DNA of 51,243 nucleotides, taken from Megalodesulfovibrio gigas DSM 1382 = ATCC 19364. Its GTDB lineage: Bacteria; Desulfobacterota; Desulfovibrionia; Desulfovibrionales; Desulfovibrionaceae. The translations under genes were made by a program, and so were the position numbers. The stretch is from NCBI RefSeq assembly GCF_000468495.1, contig NC_022444.1, positions 3,397,553 to 3,448,795 of the forward strand. Reading direction: 5' to 3'. The notes beneath the pieces are model-generated. The model had not been told where the DNA came from, searched no databases, and saw only the letters and a program-made list of their open reading frames with translations. Shown one piece after another: positions 19,926-27,875 of the stretch (positions are counted from its first letter, which is position 1; each line of letters opens with the position of its first letter).

Positions 19926-21011
19926 TTATCCCAGTGCGTCAACCACGGCATCGCCCATGGCTGTGCAGCCCACGAGGGTCAGACCGGGCTGGGCGCTGTT
20001 GTAGATGTCGCCAGTGCGCAGGCCCTTGTCCAGCACGGCAGAGACAGCCTGCTCGATGACGGCGGCCTCGGCCTCCAGGCCCAGGGCAAAGCGCAGCATC
20101 ATGGCCACGGACAGGATGGTGGCCAGGGGGTTGGCCTTGTCCTGGCCGGCGATGTCCGGAGCCGAGCCGTGGATGGGCTCGTAGATGCCGGGGCCGGATT
20201 CGCCCACCGAGGCCGAGGGCAGCATGCCGATGGAACCGGTGATGGCCGCGGCGGCGTCGGAGAGGATATCCCCGAACAGGTTGCCGGTGACGATGACGTC
20301 GAACTGGCTGGGATCGCGCACCAGCTGCATGGCGGCGTTGTCCACGTACATGTGGCTCAGTTCCACGTCCTGGTAGTCCTTGTGGACTTCGATGACCACA
20401 TCCCGCCAGAGCTGGGAGACGTCCAGCACGTTGGCCTTGTCCACGCTGCACAGGCGCTTGCCGCGCTTGCGGGCAGCCTCGAAGGCCACCTTGGCGATGC
20501 GGCGGACTTCGGACTCGGTGTAGCGCATGGTGTTGAAGCCCATGCGCTCGCCGTTTTCTTCCACAATGCCCTTGGGCTGACCAAAGTAGACGCAGCCGGT
20601 CAGCTCGCGCACCACCAGCACGTCCAGGCCCTTGGCCACGATGTCCGGCCGCAGATAGCTGGCCGAGGCCAGTTGCGGAAAGAGCGTGGCCGGGCGGAAG
20701 TTGGCAAAGCAGTTCAGCTCCTTGCGGATCTTTAGCAGGCCGGTTTCCGCGCGCAGGTGGCGGGGCAGGTTGTCCCACTTGGGACCGCCCACGGCGCCGA
20801 GCAGCACGGCGTCGCTTTCCTTGCAGGCCTGGACCGTGGCGTCGGGCATGGGCTCGCCCACGGCGTCGATGGCCGCGCCGCCGGCCAGAACATTGGTGTA
20901 CGTGAACGTGTGGCCGAACTTGCGGCCCACCAGATCCAGCACCCGCACGGCCTGGGTCACGATCTCGGGGCCGATGCCGTCGCCGGGCATGAGGCAGATG
21001 GAGTAATTCAT
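19926..21011 (-). CDS. leuB: 3-isopropylmalate dehydrogenase
   Basis: 361 residues from the ATG at 21011 ([17 protein letters not shown]). Family motifs include GDGIGPE at the N terminus, [11 protein letters not shown], the arginine-rich active site loop ([13 protein letters not shown]), and the metal-binding [29 protein letters not shown] region that also gives NAD specificity with GSAPDIAGQ. It oxidises and decarboxylates 3-isopropylmalate in leucine synthesis. It is the last gene of leuA-C-D-B, set apart from leuD by 194 bases that hold a long inverted repeat. The longer ORF to 21146 runs through that repeat and is rejected. Confidence 0.97.
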
Positions 21012-21205: not shown

Positions 21206-21700
21206 TTACGCCGTCAGACGCTGTTTGACGTAGTTCACCAGGCCGCCGGCGTTCAGGATCCCCTGCATGAAGGGCGGCACGGGCTGGGCGGCGATGGTCT
21301 CGCCGGTGCGCTTGTTAAGGATCTGCCCGGTGATGATGTCCACTTCCAGGGGATCGCCGTCCTGGATGCGGCTGATGTCGTCTCCCACTTCCAGCAGGGG
21401 CAGGCCCATGTTGAAGCTGTTGCGGTAGAAGATGCGGGCATAGGAATGGGCAATGACCACACTCACGCCCGCGCCCAGGATGGCCACCGGGGCGTGCTCG
21501 CGGGAGGAGCCGCAGCCGAAGTTGCGGCCAGCCACGATGAAGTCGCCCTTCTGGATGCGTTTGTTCCAGCCGGGCTCCAGGCCTTCCATGCAGTGCTTGC
21601 CGAGCTCCACAGGATCGGTGGTCACAAGAAACGGGGCCGGGATGATGGCGTCGGTATCGATATGCTCGCCCACCAGATGGGCAGCGCCGGAAAGTTTCAT
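21206..21700 (-). CDS. leuD: 3-isopropylmalate dehydratase small subunit
   Basis: 164 residues, the short HacB-type (archaeal and deltaproteobacterial) LeuD and not the approximately 200-residue enterobacterial form. Motifs: [10 protein letters not shown] at the N terminus and [14 protein letters not shown]. With LeuC it isomerises 2-isopropylmalate to 3-isopropylmalate. It begins 21 bases after leuC. Confidence 0.96.
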
Positions 21701-21721: not shown

Positions 21722-22999
21722 TTACAGAGACGCAGGGTGGACGATTTCGCCAGCCACGGCCGCGGCGGCGGCCAGGGACGGGGAAGACAGATACACCTCG
21801 CTCTCCAGGTGTCCCATGCGGCCCTTGAAATTGCGGTTGGTGGTGGCGATGGCGCGTTCGCCCTTGGCCAGAATGCCCATGTGGCCACCCAGGCAGGGCC
21901 CGCAGGTGGGCGGCCCCACGATGCAGCCGGCTTCCATGAAGGTTTCCAGCAGCCCTTCCCTAAGAGCCTGGGTCCAGATTTTCGGCGTGGCCGGCAGCAC
22001 CACGCAGCGCACGGACTTCTTCACCTTGCGGCCCTTGAGGATGGCCGCGGCTTCGCGCAGGTCCTCAATGCGGCCGTTGGTGCAGGAACCGATGACGGAC
22101 TGGTTGACCACGATATGCTCGGCGGCCAGCTCATCCACGCCGCGCACGTTGTCCGGCAGGTGCGGGCAGGCCACCTGCGGCGACAGGGAGGCGGCGTCAA
22201 TCTTGATGATCTCGTCATAGGGCGCGCCGGCGTCGGGGGCGATTTCCTGCGTGGCGGTGTGGCCGTGGGCCTTGGCGAAGGCCAGGGTCTTGGCATCCGC
22301 CGCAAAAAGCCCGACCTTGCCGCCAGCCTCAATGGCCATGTTGGCCATGGTCAGGCGACCTTCCACGGAAAGGGCGGCCACGGTGCTGCCGCCGAACTCC
22401 AGGGCCTTGTAGCGTGCGCCGTCCACGCCGGTCTTGCCGATGGTGTGGAGGATCAGATCCTTCGCGCCCACGTAGGCCGACAGCTCGCCGTCGATCTGCA
22501 CATAGATGGTCTGGGGCACCTTGAACCAGGTCTCGCCCAGGGCCATGGCTCCGGCGATGTCCGTGGAGCCCATGCCCGTGGCAAAGGCGCACAGGCCGCC
22601 GTAGGTGCAGGTGTGGCTGTCTGCCCCCACCACCACGTCGCCGGGGCCCACCAGGCCCAGTTCGGGCAGCAGCGCGTGTTCCACGCCGCAGTCCCCGCCC
22701 TCATAATAGTGCAGGATGTCCTGCTCCTGGGCGAATTCCCGGATGCCGCGCACCTGTTCGGCGGAGGCAATGTCCTTGTTGGGGGTGAAATGGTCCATCA
22801 CCAGGGCGATCTTGGTCTTGTCGAAGACCGTGGCCGCGCCCATCTGCCGGAAGCTCTTGATGGCCAGGGGCGCGGTGATGTCGTTCGCCAGCACCAGGGA
22901 GACGCGGCAGCGGATAATCTGCCCGGCCTCCTTGATCACTTCGTCGCTGGCGGCCTGAAGCAGTTTCATGGCAAGGGTGTGCGCTACAGCGTGACGCAT
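21722..22999 (-). CDS. leuC: 3-isopropylmalate dehydratase large subunit
   Basis: 425 residues, HacA-type LeuC. Iron-sulfur ligands are visible: Cys in IGSCTNGRIEDL and the pair in PTCGPCLGGHMG. DSHTCTYGG is the aconitase-family substrate loop. The ATG at 22999 has AAGGAGGAGG upstream and overlaps the end of leuA by 16 bases, so the two are translationally linked. The enzyme needs a [4Fe-4S] cluster in its active site. Confidence 0.97.
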   Translation of the reverse strand: MRHAVAHTLAMKLLQAASDEVIKEAGQIIRCRVSLVLANDITAPLAIKSFRQMGAATVFDKTKIALVMDHFTPNKDIASAEQVRGIREFAQEQDILHYYEGGDCGVEHALLPELGLVGPGDVVVGADSHTCTYGGLCAFATGMGSTDIAGAMALGETWFKVPQTIYVQIDGELSAYVGAKDLILHTIGKTGVDGARYKALEFGGSTVAALSVEGRLTMANMAIEAGGKVGLFAADAKTLAFAKAHGHTATQEIAPDAGAPYDEIIKIDAASLSPQVACPHLPDNVRGVDELAAEHIVVNQSVIGSCTNGRIEDLREAAAILKGRKVKKSVRCVVLPATPKIWTQALREGLLETFMEAGCIVGPPTCGPCLGGHMGILAKGERAIATTNRNFKGRMGHLESEVYLSSPSLAAAAAVAGEIVHPASL

Positions 23000-24513
23000 T
23001 GACGTTCCTCCTCCTTTTTGGCGAGGCGATTGAGGGCGTTGAGATAGGCCTTGGCCCCGGCCTTGATGACGTCGCCGTCGGCCCCGCGACCCACGGCGGC
23101 GTGCGCATCCATGCGCAGCCGGACCATCACCTCGGCCTGGGCGTCCGTGCCCGAGGTGACGGCGTTGACCTGATAGTGTTCCAATACCGGGGACTTGCCC
23201 ACGGCCTTGTTGATGGCGCTGAAGGCGGCGTCCACCGGCCCCACGCCGAAAGTGGCTTCGCGGATCTCGCGGCCGTCCATTTCCAGCACCAGGGCGGCGG
23301 AAGGCGGATCGACCCCGGCCACCACGGTGAGGTTCCTCAACCGGTACTTGTCCGGAATGCGGAAGACCTCTTCCAGGACCACGGCTTCCACGTCCTCGTC
23401 GAAAATCTGTTCCTTCTTGTCCGCCAGCTTCTTGATGGCTTCAAAGACGATGCCCAGCTGCTCGTCGGAGAGGGTGAAGCCCAGCTCCCGACACTTGGTG
23501 CCCAGGGCGTTGCGGCCGGAATGCTTGCCCAACACCAGTTCCGTGCGGGTGCGGCCCACGGCTTCGGGGGTCATGATCTCGTACGTGCGGCTGTCTTTGA
23601 GCATGCCATCCTGATGGATGCCGCTCTCATGGGCAAAGGCGTTGGCGCCCACAATGGCCTTGTACGGCGGGATGGGCGCGCCGATGATCATGGACAACAG
23701 CCGGCACGTGGGGAACAACTGCTCCGTGCGGATGCCCGTTTCCAGCTGGAAATACGGCTGCCGCGTGCGCAGGGCCATGATCACCTCTTCCAACGCGGCG
23801 TTGCCGGCGCGCTCCCCGATGCCGGAGACGGTCACTTCCGCCTGCCGGGCCCCGGCCTTGAGCGCCGCCAGGGTGTTGGCCGCAGCCAAGCCGAGATCGT
23901 TGTGACAATGCACGGACCAGACCACCTTCTCGCTGCCGGGAACATGCTCCAGCAGATAGGCGATCAGCTCCCCGAACTCCTGGGGCTGGGCATAGCCCAC
24001 GGTATCCGGAATGTTGATGGTCCTGGCCCCGGCCTTGATGACCTCCGCGCAGATGCGCGCCAGGAACGGCGGCTCGGAACGCGAGGCGTCCTCGGCGGAA
24101 AACTCCACGTTGGCCGTGTACTGCGCCGCGTGCCTGACGGCGGCGATGGCCATTTCCACCACCTGATCCGGCGCCTTGCGCAGCTTCTTTTCCATGTGGA
24201 TGGGCGACGTGGCGATGAAGGTGTGGATGCGCGGATGGGCCGCGTCCTTGATGGCCTCCCAGGCGCGGTCGATGTCCGGCTGGATGGCCCGGGCCAGACC
24301 GGCAATCTGGGAATCCTTCACCGCGGCGGCAATGGCCTGCACGGCCTGGAAATCGCCCTTGGAGGCCGCAGGAAAGCCGGCTTCGATGACGTCCACGCCC
24401 ATGCCTTCCAACTGTTTGGCCAGGCGGATCTTTTCCTGCTGGTTCATGGTGGCGCCCGGCGATTGCTCGCCGTCGCGCAAGGTGGTGTCGAAAATGATGA
24501 CGCGATTGGACAT
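22984..24513 (-). CDS. leuA: 2-isopropylmalate synthase
   Basis: 509 residues from the ATG at 24513 (MSNRVIIFDTTLRDGEQSP) with GGAG seven bases upstream. The catalytic TIM barrel carries DTTLRDGEQSPG, and the metal ligands HCHNDLG and GERAGNAALEE. The C-terminal leucine-binding regulatory domain follows (GVGPVDAAFSAINK and GRGADGDVIKAGAKAYLNAL), so feedback inhibition by leucine is expected. It makes the first committed step of leucine synthesis. A leader peptide lies upstream. Confidence 0.97.
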   Translation of the reverse strand: MSNRVIIFDTTLRDGEQSPGATMNQQEKIRLAKQLEGMGVDVIEAGFPAASKGDFQAVQAIAAAVKDSQIAGLARAIQPDIDRAWEAIKDAAHPRIHTFIATSPIHMEKKLRKAPDQVVEMAIAAVRHAAQYTANVEFSAEDASRSEPPFLARICAEVIKAGARTINIPDTVGYAQPQEFGELIAYLLEHVPGSEKVVWSVHCHNDLGLAAANTLAALKAGARQAEVTVSGIGERAGNAALEEVIMALRTRQPYFQLETGIRTEQLFPTCRLLSMIIGAPIPPYKAIVGANAFAHESGIHQDGMLKDSRTYEIMTPEAVGRTRTELVLGKHSGRNALGTKCRELGFTLSDEQLGIVFEAIKKLADKKEQIFDEDVEAVVLEEVFRIPDKYRLRNLTVVAGVDPPSAALVLEMDGREIREATFGVGPVDAAFSAINKAVGKSPVLEHYQVNAVTSGTDAQAEVMVRLRMDAHAAVGRGADGDVIKAGAKAYLNALNRLAKKEEERQCVTL

Positions 24514-24543
24514 GGTGCTGCTCCGCGATCGGTGGCGATTCCT

Positions 24544-24652
24544 ACCGAAAAGCCCGGCGCATGGCAAAGGCTTCCGGCAGGAAGGGAGTCCCCGCCTTGC
24601 GGTGGGGATATGCCTGGGGCAAACGATGGACGAAGACCGTCCTGAAGAACGG
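24544..24652 (-). promoter_or_regulatory. Putative leucine attenuator structures
   Basis: Between leuL and leuA the transcript can fold in competing ways. A hairpin at 24637-24652 (CCGTTC with GGACGG, loop TTCA) overlaps another at 24628-24642 (GGAC with GTCC), so only one can form. A further hairpin lies at 24590-24607 (CCCC and GGGG arms). A last stem at 24544-24578 encloses a TTTT run just before leuA. I cannot assign terminator and antiterminator with certainty. Confidence 0.5.
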
Positions 24653-24670
24653 AGAAATGGATGACGAGCG

Positions 24671-24742
24671 CTACAGCGCCCGTAGCAGGAGGCGACGGGA
24701 AATGGCGGAGCAGGAGGCGATATGGCAAATAAAGCAATCCAT
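24671..24742 (-). CDS. leuL: Leucine operon leader peptide
   Basis: A 23-codon ORF ending RRLLLRAL then TAG. Codons 18-20 are CTC, CTG and CTA and codon 23 is CTG, so four of the last six codons are Leu; CTA should be uncommon in a GC-rich genome. The ATG has AGAGGAGG about eight bases upstream, better than many full genes here. It lies 157 bases before leuA on the same strand. Leu codons at the end of a short translated leader are the mark of leucine attenuation in known leuL systems. The peptide also contains several Cys codons, whose meaning is unclear. Confidence 0.8.
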   Translation of the reverse strand: MDCFICHIASCSAISRRLLLRAL

Positions 24743-24826
24743 AGATGCCCCTCCTCTAGCACCGCCCCGCCCGCACGTCAAGGAAAATTGATCGAGCAAA
24801 CAGCATAACGCGCGACATATCCTGCC

Positions 24827-25978
24827 TCATTCAATCACCGAATCCGTCACCTGGGGATCGCCGTTGCCGAGGTAGAAGATGCCCGGATAGCCCGGCGTCT
24901 CAAAGCCGGCGCTGGGATTGTCGCGCAGGGTGGAATTTTCGATCACCAGGGTGCCGGTGCGGTCGTTGCTGACAAAAAAGATGGCGCCGCCGCCTTCGTT
25001 GGCCGTGTTGTGTTCGATGCTCGTGCCGCACAGCCGCAAAGTGAAGGTGTTGCCGTCGTTGTAAATCGCCCCGCCGCTGCCGCCGCCGGGCGTGCCAGGG
25101 CGGGCCGGGTTCGCGCCCGTGCCGATGGCCTTGTTGTACGAGAACAGGCTGTTGAGCACGGTAAAGGACACCCCGATGCTGGAGAGGCCGCCGCCATTGG
25201 AGCCCACATTGCCGTAGCGCGATCCGCCGCCGAAGGTGCTGTTGACCACGTAGACGGGCTGGTCCTGGTATTGATCGAACACCCGCACGGCAGCGCCGCC
25301 CACGTCCGGCCCTTCGGCATCGCAGGTATTGTTGAAGAATCGGCTGTTGACGATCTTGAAGCGGCCGCCGCGGACGTAGATAGCGCCGCCGCCGTCATAA
25401 GCCTCGCCTGTGGAATCGGCGTTGCTGAAGGTCAGATTCTGCACCGTGAGCCGGGGGTGGTCCTGATCGTCACAATGGGGCGTGGTCCAGACCTGGTCCG
25501 GGTCGCAGGTGTTCATGTACAGGATGCGGCGTGCGCCGCCGCCGCTCAGGGTCACCTTGCCGCCACCGTCCAGGACGATCTTTGGGCCGGTGTTGTTGAA
25601 GACCTTGGCCGTGGCCTGCAAGGCGATGGTCACGGGGGCGGGGCCGCAGTTGAAGGTGATGACGCCGCCCCGGGCCACGGCGTCCACCACGGCCTGACTG
25701 GTGCAACTGGAGGGCCGGCCGTCGCCGATGACCTGATCCGGCTGGGAGACGTCCTCGGCCTGGGCTTCGGCGGGGATGCTGCAACGGCCCTGGGGGTTGC
25801 CGGCAGGGGGCAGGCCGGCCTGCCTGGCCTGGGCCAGCATGGCCGGCAGACTCAGCAGCAGCGTGTCTGCGGCGTCTGAAGCGGCTGGAGATGCAGCAGC
25901 CGCGGCCGGCAGGATCCACAATCGGCACACAAGCCACGGCAACGCAACACAGCACATGATGATACAACGCCACGACAT
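24827..25978 (-). CDS. Secreted right-handed beta-helix protein
   Basis: 383 residues from the ATG at 25978 (MSWRCIIMCC) with GGAGG upstream; the longer frame overlaps the divergent promoter region. The first 30 residues form a signal peptide ending near AAAAASPA. The body has repeated short beta-rungs such as GGAIYVRGGRFKIVNSRFFNNT, NGGGLSSIGVSFTVLNSLFSYN and GGGAIFFVSNDRTGTLVIENSTLRDN, the pattern of parallel beta-helix and polymorphic outer-membrane-type repeats. There is no autotransporter barrel. Function is unknown; surface or secreted adhesion or polysaccharide binding is possible. It is divergent from the next gene. Confidence 0.75.
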   Translation of the reverse strand: MSWRCIIMCCVALPWLVCRLWILPAAAAASPAASDAADTLLLSLPAMLAQARQAGLPPAGNPQGRCSIPAEAQAEDVSQPDQVIGDGRPSSCTSQAVVDAVARGGVITFNCGPAPVTIALQATAKVFNNTGPKIVLDGGGKVTLSGGGARRILYMNTCDPDQVWTTPHCDDQDHPRLTVQNLTFSNADSTGEAYDGGGAIYVRGGRFKIVNSRFFNNTCDAEGPDVGGAAVRVFDQYQDQPVYVVNSTFGGGSRYGNVGSNGGGLSSIGVSFTVLNSLFSYNKAIGTGANPARPGTPGGGSGGAIYNDGNTFTLRLCGTSIEHNTANEGGGAIFFVSNDRTGTLVIENSTLRDNPSAGFETPGYPGIFYLGNGDPQVTDSVIE

Positions 25979-26141
25979 GACTGCAACCCTCCGCTGCATG
26001 ATACACAGGAAGATGAGCACGGGCACAAGGCGGACGAGGCCTGCTGTTTTCTCCCACACAATGATTGTCCGCGCAACGCACATGTGGTACCTTGTCGCAT
26101 CTTTTCCATGCAGCCACGCAACTTCCCGGGGGGGCCAAACC

Positions 26142-27875
26142 ATGCGTTACAACATCCTGCATCTGCTCGCATTGTGTTGCGGCTTGGCGCTGGCCATCCA
26201 TGCCACCGCCAGTTTCGGCCACGCCGCCAGCGGGGACGACATGCTGCTGACAGTGCCCAGTACAGCCCCGCCCGCAGCACGGGGTATCGTCTTCACCACG
26301 GAGGGCGCCTCCTTCTCGCCAGTGCTGGTCGTCACCGGTACGCCGACCATCCGGTGGATCTGGTCCGACGGCACCACCAGCACCAGCGCCACACCCACCA
26401 AAAATTTCGGCAGCGCCGGGAAACGTCGGCAGACCCTGATGGTGACCCCCTGGAGCGCCGTGCAGCGTATCAACATCGGCTACGATGCCGGCGACGGCGG
26501 CACATACGACATCGAATTCGTGCCGGATCAACAGGTCTCCAAGGTCGAGGGCCTGCACCACGTGCGGCCCTGGCTCCGGCAATGGTGCTCCTCCTACAAC
26601 CAGATCCCCAGCCTTGACTTCAGCAATTTTGAGCAGCTGGATACCATCGAGTGCTATCTGTCCACCTCCCTCCAGCAGGTGAACCTGCGCAACACGCCCA
26701 ACCTGCAACGGGCCTGCTTCGAGGATTGCAGCCTCCAGGCCCTGGACCTCTCCGGCAGCCCGCTGCTGGAGGATCTGCGCGGGGCGTTGAACAACTACCC
26801 GACCGTCACCTTTGGCAGCGTCGGCGCGAACACATGGCACATCTGCATCCGGGACAACCCGCAGATGACCGTGCGCAACCTGTTCGCCAACATGGCCCAG
26901 TTCCCCGTCATCAGTGAATTGTTCATCTGGAACACCAACCAGTCCGGCACCCTGCGCGTCCCGGCCTCGGCCCCGGGCAGCTCGGTGTCCATCATTGCCG
27001 ATGACAACCAGTACACCAGCCTGGACCTTTCCGGCGCGCTGCAGCATGGCGTGTTCCAGGCATGGGTGAGCCTGAACAACAATCCCCTCACCGCCGTGAA
27101 CATCACCGGCTGTCAGCAGATTACCGACCTGCGCCTGAACGGCAATCAGCTGAGTTCCGCCAGCCTGGATACCCTGCTGGCCACCCTGGACAGCCTCGGC
27201 AGAAGCGATCTCAACAGCAACGGCGAACTGTTTGCAGACATCCGCGGCGCCGCCAATCCTGGCGCAGCCGGCTATGCCAGCGCCCAGGTCCTGGGCACCA
27301 AGGGCTGGACCATCCATGCCAACAGCTGGAGCGTGGAACCCCAGCCGCCCAACAACGGCCAGCAGGACATTACGTTCACCACCACCGGGGACACCACAAA
27401 CATGCGCTGCGATTTCCGCGACGACACCACCACAGCCACGTGGCGGTGGTCCGACGGAACCACCACCCCGGCCACTTCCGGGGCCGCGACACAAAAGACC
27501 GGCCTGGGCGCGGGGGCCCACACCCACGTCCTGCGCATCTCCAACGGCGCAGCCCTGCGACGCTTCGGAGCAGCCAGCGGTGGCGAAGGACATCTGGTGT
27601 CCATGACCGGGTTTGCAAACACCCCGTCCCTGAAGATCCTCTATGCGTACATGGAAACAGCCCTGAACAGCCTGGGCCGGACCAACACCACCGTGGTCAG
27701 CGAATATCACCTGATGGATACGGCGCTTTCAGCCGCATCCATCGATCAGGTCTATGCGGATGCCGTGGCTACCAATATCTGGAACGGCTCCATCTGGAGC
27801 AGCAACAGCGGCACGGCAGCCAGCGCGGCAAACCGCGCCACCCTGCAGGCCCGGGGCTGGACGCTTTCCGAGTAA
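26142..27875 (+). CDS. Secreted leucine-rich-repeat-like protein
   Basis: 577 residues from the ATG at 26142, chosen because a clean signal peptide begins there (MRYNILHLLALCCGLALAIH, cleavage near GHAAS) and a G-rich ribosome site precedes it. It contains loosely repeated LRR-like segments (LDLSGSPLLEDLRG, LDLSGALQHG, VNITGCQQITDLRLNGNQL). Two copies of a beta-rich module with a WSDGTT core lie near residues 65 and 440. It has many Thr, Asn and Ser residues. There is no anchor. Such proteins are usually surface or secreted binding proteins; the role here is unknown. A repeat-type hairpin follows the stop. Confidence 0.7.
   Translation: MRYNILHLLALCCGLALAIHATASFGHAASGDDMLLTVPSTAPPAARGIVFTTEGASFSPVLVVTGTPTIRWIWSDGTTSTSATPTKNFGSAGKRRQTLMVTPWSAVQRINIGYDAGDGGTYDIEFVPDQQVSKVEGLHHVRPWLRQWCSSYNQIPSLDFSNFEQLDTIECYLSTSLQQVNLRNTPNLQRACFEDCSLQALDLSGSPLLEDLRGALNNYPTVTFGSVGANTWHICIRDNPQMTVRNLFANMAQFPVISELFIWNTNQSGTLRVPASAPGSSVSIIADDNQYTSLDLSGALQHGVFQAWVSLNNNPLTAVNITGCQQITDLRLNGNQLSSASLDTLLATLDSLGRSDLNSNGELFADIRGAANPGAAGYASAQVLGTKGWTIHANSWSVEPQPPNNGQQDITFTTTGDTTNMRCDFRDDTTTATWRWSDGTTTPATSGAATQKTGLGAGAHTHVLRISNGAALRRFGAASGGEGHLVSMTGFANTPSLKILYAYMETALNSLGRTNTTVVSEYHLMDTALSAASIDQVYADAVATNIWNGSIWSSNSGTAASAANRATLQARGWTLSE

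What the first reader, a model, noticed from the sequence alone, without database searches (positions are those of the whole stretch)
24544..24742. Leucine attenuator with an unannotated leader peptide
A 23-codon ORF with a strong ribosome site ends in RRLLLRAL, including consecutive CTC CTG CTA codons and a last CTG. Overlapping, mutually exclusive hairpins follow before leuA. This matches leucine leader attenuation, known from enteric leuL, in a different lineage and in an ORF too short for usual gene finding.
Basis: partly seen in the sequence, partly recalled or inferred. Interest (0 to 1): 0.7.

Follow-up and report, generated by a model that had tools for sequence, protein, structure and literature searches.

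The report
Leucine sensor ahead of leuA
In the sulfate-reducer Desulfovibrio gigas a 23-codon reading frame before the leucine genes looks like a leucine gauge, and in most relatives examined a similar gauge, written in a very rare leucine codon, is built into the end of an unrelated membrane-lipid gene next door.

Summary
The small ORF is real (24742-24671, minus strand, MDCFICHIASCSAISRRLLLRAL*, 157 nt before leuA). Its leucine codons and a stop-codon hairpin are conserved in the only congener held; the 'strong ribosome site' is not. No intrinsic terminator and no ribosome-dependent hairpin switch could be shown in the window.

Relatives suggest what it is. In 139 of 152 genomes of the order pssA (phosphatidylserine synthase) lies upstream of leuA, and its last ~24 codons are loaded with the rare leucine codon CTA: 151 of 306 Leu codons in the last 18 against 18 of 2395 in the body (87 dereplicated genomes, not selected for CTA). 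A hairpin lies over the stop codon. Where pssA is not next to leuA its tail has no CTA (0 of 10). Some genomes, D. gigas among them, instead have a stand-alone uORF with CTA and a hairpin starting there (5 of 13 without pssA upstream, 0.2 expected).

This fits a leucine-responsive attenuator with CUA as sensor codon, as in Salmonella and Campylobacter leuL. New here is a sensor hosted in the 3' end of a structural gene, with an effector step that is not a visible intrinsic terminator (Rho is my guess). Function is untested.

The parts
24671..24742 (-). leader ORF, MDCFICHIASCSAISRRLLLRAL*
   Evidence: 4 substitutions in 72 nt in L082
24683..24691 (-). leucine codons CTC CTG CTA (CTA at 24685-24683 is the rare one)
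   Evidence: CTA enrichment in relatives
24664..24683 (-). hairpin H1, 8 bp + 4-nt loop, begins in the CTA codon and covers the stop codon
   Evidence: z -2.56; counterpart hairpins in relatives
24753..24781 (-). tentative promoter: -35 TTGACG (24781-24776), 17-nt spacer, -10 TAGAGG (24758-24753; TATCCA in the congener)
   Evidence: not found by the strict scan
24651..24670 (-). pyrimidine-rich, G-poor stretch directly after the leader stop (9 C, 2 G in 20 nt); possible start of Rho loading (guess)
   Evidence: relatives
24628..24642 (-). hairpin GGACG-GUCUU-CGUCC (overlaps the weaker CCGUUC-UUCA-GGACGG, 24652-24637)
24590..24607 (-). hairpin CCCCACCGCAAGGCGGGG
24539..24583 (-). large hairpin before leuA, no U-tract after it; one outer pair is lost in the congener
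22984..24513 (-). leuA, 2-isopropylmalate synthase, first gene of leuACDB
21722..22999 (-). leuC
21206..21700 (-). leuD
   Evidence: TIGR02087 above its cut-off
19926..21011 (-). leuB
   Evidence: start read

Best explanation
It is the leucine-sensing half of a ribosome-dependent attenuator of the leuACDB operon. A ribosome translating the end of an upstream reading frame (here a dedicated 23-codon leader, in most relatives the 3' end of pssA) meets CUA, a very rare leucine codon, placed at or near the 5' foot of a hairpin that closes over the stop codon. With leucine plentiful the ribosome passes, releases at the stop, the hairpin forms behind it, and transcription tends to stop in the untranslated stretch before leuA. 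With charged leucyl-tRNA scarce it stalls on CUA, holds the hairpin open, and transcription continues into leuA. Shown by sequence statistics: the codon choice at the end of pssA, the hairpin, and its tie to leuA. Supported by fewer cases: the dedicated leaders. Inferred: stalling, leucine response, direction of control. Guessed: termination by Rho rather than an intrinsic terminator.
For: In 87 dereplicated genomes with pssA upstream of leuA, not selected for CTA, CTA is 151 of 306 Leu codons in the last 18 codons of pssA against 18 of 2395 in its body; the next codon is CGA (26/255 against 17/595), others below 2-fold. Without dereplication, in 115 genomes with gap up to 230 nt, CTA/Leu is 44/87, 131/175, 71/159, 16/123 and 2/78 in successive six-codon bins from the stop and near zero beyond. 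CTA is 2 of 1208 Leu codons in 30 leuA genes. The pssA tail holds a CTA in 120 of 139 genomes (24 of them only one) against 0 of 10 readable pssA tails not adjacent to leuA (Fisher p 1.8e-8, not corrected for kinship). Hairpin over the stop: mean best z -2.51 against -0.87 inside the same genes (87 genomes). Where the adjacent pssA tail lacks CTA and the gap is 310-402 nt, all 7 genomes have a CTA uORF (2.8 expected) and 5 have one with two or more CTA (0.2 expected). CTA plus hairpin: 5 of 13 genomes without pssA upstream, 0.22 expected. CUA is the significant codon of the Salmonella leu attenuator (passage on Carter 1986 in PMC1183508), and C. jejuni LeuL ends in rare Leu codons including CUA (PMC3847290 passages).
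Against: No expression data. The window leader has one CTA among four Leu codons, and a uORF with one CTA is by itself expected by chance (7 of 13 against 6.2). 19 of 152 genomes show no accepted sensor. Folding shows no downstream switch in the window, and pairing of the freed hairpin arm with downstream RNA is not above control over 60 genomes (4.8 against 4.4 pairs, p 0.41). C over G after the stop is weak in stand-alone leaders (137 to 113). Five stand-alone leaders of one genus (L146, L153, L154, L156, L157) show no H1 (z -0.7 to +0.7), and of the seven CTA uORFs above only one has an unbroken stem from its CTA.
Confidence: 0.74

Rival explanations
1. A classical enteric-type attenuator: protector, antiterminator and intrinsic terminator hairpins compete, as in leuL.
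For: Leucine-rich leader and several hairpins in the window. In genus g8 the H1 region forms a duplex with a downstream block in all 10 genomes, with compensating changes (GAAUUG/CAAUUC, GAUUUG/AAAAUC, GAACUU/AGUUUU); the best long-range duplex beats shuffles at p 0.03 in 6 of 10 g8 and at p 0.04 in 6 of 14 g47 genomes (related genomes, pairings first seen by eye). A few relatives have hairpin plus U-run (L182, L103).
Against: Terminator-like sites in 6 of 61 dereplicated pssA-type genomes (2.5 expected) and 2 of 20 stand-alone leaders, none in the window. Window and congener show less long-range complementarity than shuffles (p 0.98, 0.995) and no change of downstream helices with ribosome position.
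Confidence: 0.12
2. The hairpin is a processing site or protein-binding RNA element, and CTA is kept only because the element needs the letters CUACG.
For: In many relatives the CTA codon is part of one hairpin type, CUACGRGAG...CUCYCRUA: 33 matches in 32 of 199 genomes, 21 of them 70-800 nt upstream of a listed leuA start.
Against: CTA codons also occur in runs and away from the hairpin foot (CTACTACTA in L111, five CTA in L108), and in leaders without this hairpin sequence (L114, L120, L146). Other codons of the hairpin are far less biased.
Confidence: 0.07
3. Translational control: the leader or the freed hairpin arm masks the leuA ribosome site, as proposed for the actinobacterial LEU element.
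For: In the window CUGCUCCGC of the leader is fully complementary to GCGGAGCAG before leuA and is paired with it in the predicted structure; in the congener the freed H1 arm pairs near that site with probability about 0.57.
Against: Leader to leuA-ribosome-site pairing beats shuffles at p 0.05 in only 1 of 20 stand-alone and 2 of 61 pssA-type leaders; window p 0.28, congener 0.66.
Confidence: 0.05
4. Rare CTA codons serve PssA itself, for example slow translation of the last membrane segment, and leuA is a bystander.
For: PssA is a membrane enzyme (recalled) and most CTA tails belong to it.
Against: PssA genes of the same order that are not next to leuA lack CTA in their tails (0 of 10). Outside the order, pssA genes upstream of leuA have CTA in 4 of 13 tails, 5 of 40 Leu codons, far less than within it.
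Confidence: 0.02

Closest known systems
leuL leucine attenuator of enteric bacteria (Rfam RF00512 Leu leader)
   Same: Short ORF with consecutive Leu codons before leuA; use of CUA as the sensitive codon (Carter 1986, seen only as a passage in PMC1183508).
   Different: No Rfam match in the window or in 14 relative loci; no intrinsic terminator or demonstrable antiterminator in the window; in most relatives examined the sensor is the end of pssA, not a separate leader.
LeuL of Campylobacter and other Epsilonproteobacteria (PMC3847290, passages read)
   Same: 20-35 aa leader ending in Leu codons that are rare in C. jejuni (CUA, CUC, CUG), before leuABCD; proposed ribosome-stall antitermination.
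   Different: Separate leader ORF found by a ribosome site, with RNAs ending shortly behind the stop; the passages read say nothing of a host structural gene.
LEU element of Actinobacteria (PMC1262725, part 1 of 3 and passages read)
   Same: Leu-rich leader before leuA without the usual attenuator parts.
   Different: There a pseudoknot with a base stem that pairs the Leu codons with the leuA ribosome site; such pairing is not above chance here.
tna operon of E. coli and predicted Rho-type cys leaders of Mycobacterium (PMC1262725)
   Same: Leader peptide with a possible Rho-dependent, not intrinsic, termination step.
   Different: tna responds to tryptophan through a nascent-peptide stall (recalled); here rare-codon stalling is inferred.

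Membership tests
ribosome-mediated amino-acid attenuator (general kind) | leader reading frame enriched in codons of the amino acid made by the operon | tested here: met
   RRLLLRAL* in the window; CTA 151/306 against 18/2395 in pssA tails of relatives
ribosome-mediated amino-acid attenuator (general kind) | RNA structure at the control codons that a stalled ribosome would disrupt | tested here: met
   H1 over the stop codon; not in five g21 leaders
ribosome-mediated amino-acid attenuator (general kind) | expression of the operon rises when the charged tRNA is scarce | not testable with these tools
   no expression data at hand
leuL of enteric bacteria (RF00512) | match to the Rfam covariance model | tested here: not met
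   no match at gathering score
leuL of enteric bacteria (RF00512) | intrinsic terminator with U-tract before leuA | tested here: not met
leuL of enteric bacteria (RF00512) | antiterminator that excludes the terminator | tested here: not met
   window; partial support only in genera g8 and g47
leuL of enteric bacteria (RF00512) | rare CUA codon among the control codons | tested here: met
actinobacterial LEU element | leader pairs with the leuA ribosome site | tested here: not met
   window p 0.28; 1 of 20 stand-alone leaders at p 0.05. The pseudoknot itself was not tested
Rho-dependent leader (tna-like) | C-rich, G-poor RNA after the leader stop and no intrinsic terminator | tested here: inconclusive
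   composition fits pssA-type leaders (C 727, G 424 in 25 nt of 87 genomes), weakly stand-alone ones; no Rho assay

The most novel reading that the evidence does not exclude
Across one bacterial order the 3' end of a functional structural gene (pssA, a membrane-lipid enzyme) doubles as the leader peptide of the neighbouring leucine operon: its last codons are kept as the very rare CTA for leucine sensing, with a hairpin over the stop and a non-intrinsic (probably Rho) termination step. The sensor has moved several times from pssA into dedicated leader peptides, some perhaps nearly leaderless, such as the D. gigas one, after which pssA lost its CTA codons.
Probability: 0.65. Interest if true: 0.78.

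Novelty: new variant of a known kind. Interest (0 to 1): 0.64.

Why it matters
If true, a regulatory leader can live inside the C-terminus of an ordinary enzyme, so amino-acid attenuators cannot be found by looking for short leader ORFs alone; codon choice at the ends of genes upstream of biosynthetic operons becomes a search signal. It gives a case where a sensor sits in a host gene in some genomes and in a dedicated leader in others within one order, and it makes the choice between intrinsic and Rho-type termination testable in sulfate reducers.

Tried and rejected
Masking of the leuA ribosome site by the leader: not above shuffles. Antiterminator pairing of the freed H1 arm: not above control over 60 genomes (4.8 against 4.4 pairs, p 0.41). 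A second measure of that call, the gain in downstream pairs, was lower in real than in shuffled sequences (0.8 against 2.1, p 0.0006), which I could not interpret. Only genera g8 and g47 show such pairing (6 of 60 dereplicated genomes at p 0.02). Intrinsic terminators: above the shuffle expectation but in 6 of 61 only. The related-loci scan gave 80 loci, by their titles mostly beta- and gammaproteobacterial, that I did not analyse. A strict sigma-70 scan found no promoter; my looser script did, so the promoter is tentative.

Corrections made on checking. The first tally of CTA tails chose the frame with most CTA and is biased. The 61-genome set was selected for having a CTA in the pssA tail; its figure of 133/229 against 2/1703 is therefore inflated, and the unselected set of 87 is used instead. 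A uORF with one CTA turned out to be no rarer than chance in genomes without pssA upstream, so the case for stand-alone leaders there rests on CTA plus hairpin; for this, and because one pssA outside the order has two CTA (L272), I lowered the probability of the novel case from 0.68 to 0.65.

Rows and limits. Upstream stretches held were about 0.7-1.5 kb, so pssA is often cut and 'body' counts use what was held. In L135 the leuA start was not found, so its 'no pssA' is unreliable; L236 and L239 were flagged in that check and kept. L110 has one doubtful CTA uORF, not counted; L123 and L219 have one each, at about the chance rate, not counted. In one search the second sequence (L082) was given on the wrong strand and is not used. 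The output was cut, so some sequences of clades g10/25 and f5 were not seen there.

Full report
WHERE THE WINDOW LIES. The window is part of a genome whose large contig has 3,693,899 bases (G000:C2). The Desulfovibrio gigas ATCC 19364 chromosome has that length (PMC4287179, passages read), so I take it to be D. gigas. One relative (G209, contig length) has the length given for Desulfovibrio indicus J2T, 3,966,573 (abstract shown).

THE OBSERVATION. On the minus strand a 23-codon ORF runs from 24742 to 24671 and ends RRLLLRAL*. leuA starts at 24513 and is followed by leuC, leuD and leuB. In the only congener held (G001, locus L082, LeuA 97% identical) the ORF keeps start, stop, frame and all four Leu codons, with 4 substitutions in 72 nt. 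A hairpin (H1, 24683-24664) starts in the CTA codon and closes over the stop codon; 2 of 200 shuffles fold as well. In the congener the G of its G-U pair is A, giving A-U.

WHAT DOES NOT HOLD. The purine tract GAGGAGGGG before the ATG is not in the congener. Both genomes share TTGACG, a 17-nt spacer ending GTGC, and a second box that starts TA (TAGAGG here, TATCCA there) and ends 10 nt before the ATG; the rest of the spacer and of the second box differ, and GCATCTATGG follows in both. Three other stand-alone leaders (L114, L120, L199) have TTGACA-N17/18 boxes ending 8-9 nt before theirs, so 5 of 20 in all. If this is the promoter, the leader mRNA is nearly leaderless and the purine tract is not transcribed (inference; the strict scan found no promoter). 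No terminator-like site was found. Two hairpins do overlap, but their computed probabilities do not depend on H1 or on a ribosome parked on CTA or on the stop, and complementarity between the H1 region and the RNA before leuA is lower than in shuffles.

RELATIVES. I compared leuA upstream DNA from 152 distinct genomes of the order, taken from those with a leuA match: 58 of 59 (50 read; 8 not fetched, mostly fragments or distant paralogues) and 191 of 199 (110 read; 8 genomes occur in both). A pssA homologue lies upstream of leuA in the stretch held in 139 of 152; the query is PssA by NCBIfam TIGR00473 (144 bits, cut-off 107).

THE CTA SIGNAL. In 115 genomes with a pssA-leuA gap of at most 230 nt, CTA is 264 of 622 Leu codons in the last 30 codons of pssA and 13 of 3125 in the body. 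From the stop upstream it is 44/87 (codons 1-6), 131/175 (7-12), 71/159 (13-18), 16/123 (19-24), 2/78 (25-30) and near zero beyond. After dereplication of all 139 to 87 genomes, without regard to CTA, it is 151/306 in the last 18 codons against 18/2395 in the body, and 69 of 87 have at least one CTA in the last 24 codons; the next codon, CGA, which often follows CTA in the hairpin, is 26/255 against 17/595. CTA is 2 of 1208 Leu codons in 30 leuA genes and 1 of 201 in six window genes.

THE CONTROL. In the 13 genomes without pssA in the stretch upstream of leuA I searched for pssA elsewhere: found in 11, tail readable in 10, CTA in the last 30 codons in 0 of 10, D. gigas among them. The distances vary: one lies on the same contig under 1 kb upstream of leuA (G185), one about 29 kb away (G023), the D. 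gigas copy about 76 kb away. The CTA codons thus follow leuA, not PssA.

STAND-ALONE LEADERS. Among 139 genomes with pssA upstream, 120 have at least one CTA in its last 24 codons and 19 have none. Of those 19, 7 (L105, L114, L120, L155, L162, L167, L199; gaps 310-402 nt) have a CTA uORF between pssA and leuA; shuffles give 2.8 of 7, and 5 of 7 have two or more CTA against 0.2 expected. Of the other 12, two have a one-CTA uORF (0.8 expected). Of the 13 without pssA upstream I accept 6 (L081, L082, L083, L084, L104, L129). There a uORF with one CTA is no more frequent than in shuffles (7 against 6.2), but CTA plus a stem of 6 or more pairs that starts at the CTA and closes near the stop occurs in 5 of 13 (L081, L082, L083, L084, L104) against 0.22 expected. 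The same test finds 1 of the 7 above, 0 of 7 in genus g21 and 0 of the 12. That makes 133 of 152 genomes with a sensor that I accept, and 19 without: L110, L122, L123, L127, L128, L130, L135, L137, L151, L171, L172, L180, L202, L203, L219, L222, L226, L228, L236. L123 and L127 use CTT instead but keep a strong hairpin by eye. Seven genomes of genus g21 have both CTA in the pssA tail and a CTA uORF; in five of these a terminator-like repeat follows pssA (read).

THE HAIRPIN. In the 87 unselected genomes the windows around the pssA stop fold better than shuffles (mean best z -2.51) compared with windows 250 nt upstream (-0.87, p 1e-10). In the CTA-selected set of 61 the value is -2.74, for pssA not adjacent to leuA -1.21 (n 10, p 0.001), and for 20 stand-alone leaders -2.27. 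A strict pattern for the commonest hairpin type gave 33 matches in 32 of 199 genomes. By coordinates 21 lie 70-800 nt upstream of a leuA start listed, 8 could not be placed because their leuA was not listed, and 4 (G098:C32, G008:C7 on both strands, G109:C43 near a contig end) are not known to be at leuA. The same pattern read backwards, the tool's control, matched 19 times, so the pattern alone is not specific; its position is.

WHAT FOLLOWS THE HAIRPIN. The 25 nt after the pssA stop hold C 727, G 424 in the 87 genomes; after non-adjacent pssA C 81, G 68 (10); after stand-alone leaders C 137, G 113, T 167 (20). Terminator-like sites occur in 6 of 61 against 2.5 expected. Pairing of the H1 region with a block before leuA is convincing in genus g8, where all 10 genomes form a duplex with compensating changes and 6 of 10 beat shuffles at p 0.03, and plausible in g47 (UGCGUAACGG with CCGUUAUGCA; 6 of 14 at p 0.04). 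These genomes are related and the pairings were first seen by eye. Over the whole set it is at control level. The sensor is conserved while the effector part differs by clade; I favour Rho-dependent termination, as a guess.

OUTSIDE THE ORDER. Of 28 phylum loci, one (L267) belongs to the order and shows CTACTACGCGCCCTA, one (L262) had no readable leuA start, and 26 lie outside. By homology 13 of these 26 have pssA upstream of leuA; 4 of 13 tails hold a CTA (L272 two, L260, L276, L278 one each), 5 of 40 Leu codons. The neighbourhood is thus wider than the order, while the dense CTA tail is seen within it.

COMPARISON WITH WHAT IS KNOWN. Leucine leaders with CUA control codons are known in Salmonella (passage in PMC1183508) and predicted in Epsilonproteobacteria (PMC3847290, passages). 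A survey of regulatory RNAs that included Desulfovibrionales used the Rfam Leu leader and says attenuator motifs may have originated in gammaproteobacteria (PMC3766115, passages). Rfam finds nothing here. My searches for a Desulfovibrio or deltaproteobacterial leucine attenuator, or for an upstream gene acting as leader, listed none that I recognised by title or abstract; the library lacks most subscription papers. Whether the leader ORF is annotated in the public record was not checked.

VERDICT. The more interesting result lies outside its coordinates: an order-wide rare-codon signature of leucine sensing at the end of pssA.

Noticed in passing
window 22984-24762 (-): The leuA reading frame is open without a stop through the whole leader up to a GTG at 24762 (592 aa); the congener frame is also open. 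Gene callers could extend leuA over the leader; homologues start at M(S/A)xxx before FDTTLRDGEQ, so I read it as non-coding there.
   Followed up: partly
L146, L153, L154, L156, L157 between pssA and leuA: After pssA a GC-rich repeat with a T-run is followed by a ribosome site and a 30-aa ORF ending ...GPLL(C/G).L..N with 3-4 CTA codons: apparently a separate leader transcript in one genus.
   Followed up: partly
L111, L178, L190, L193, L200, L204, L207, L208, L220, L225 downstream of pssA: A block ending GGGGACGGTAA or GAGGACGGTAA can pair with the pssA tail GTCCTCCAAAGA..., with compensating changes that match a Glu/Asp change in PssA.
   Followed up: partly
G098:C32:142713-142736 (L302), G109:C43:180-214 (L282), G008:C7:174273-174294 (L303): Hairpin-pattern matches not known to lie before leuA; the G008 site matches on both strands.
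   Followed up: no
L123, L127: Two relatives keep a strong stop-codon hairpin in the pssA tail but use CTT instead of CTA.
   Followed up: no
L272 (outside the order): A pssA tail 349 nt before leuA holds two CTA codons, a possible intermediate or chance.
   Followed up: no
window 24827-26143 (-): A 438-aa ORF upstream of the leader, rich in Gly/Asn stretches like a beta-helix protein by eye, matches no NCBIfam family at E 0.001.
   Followed up: no
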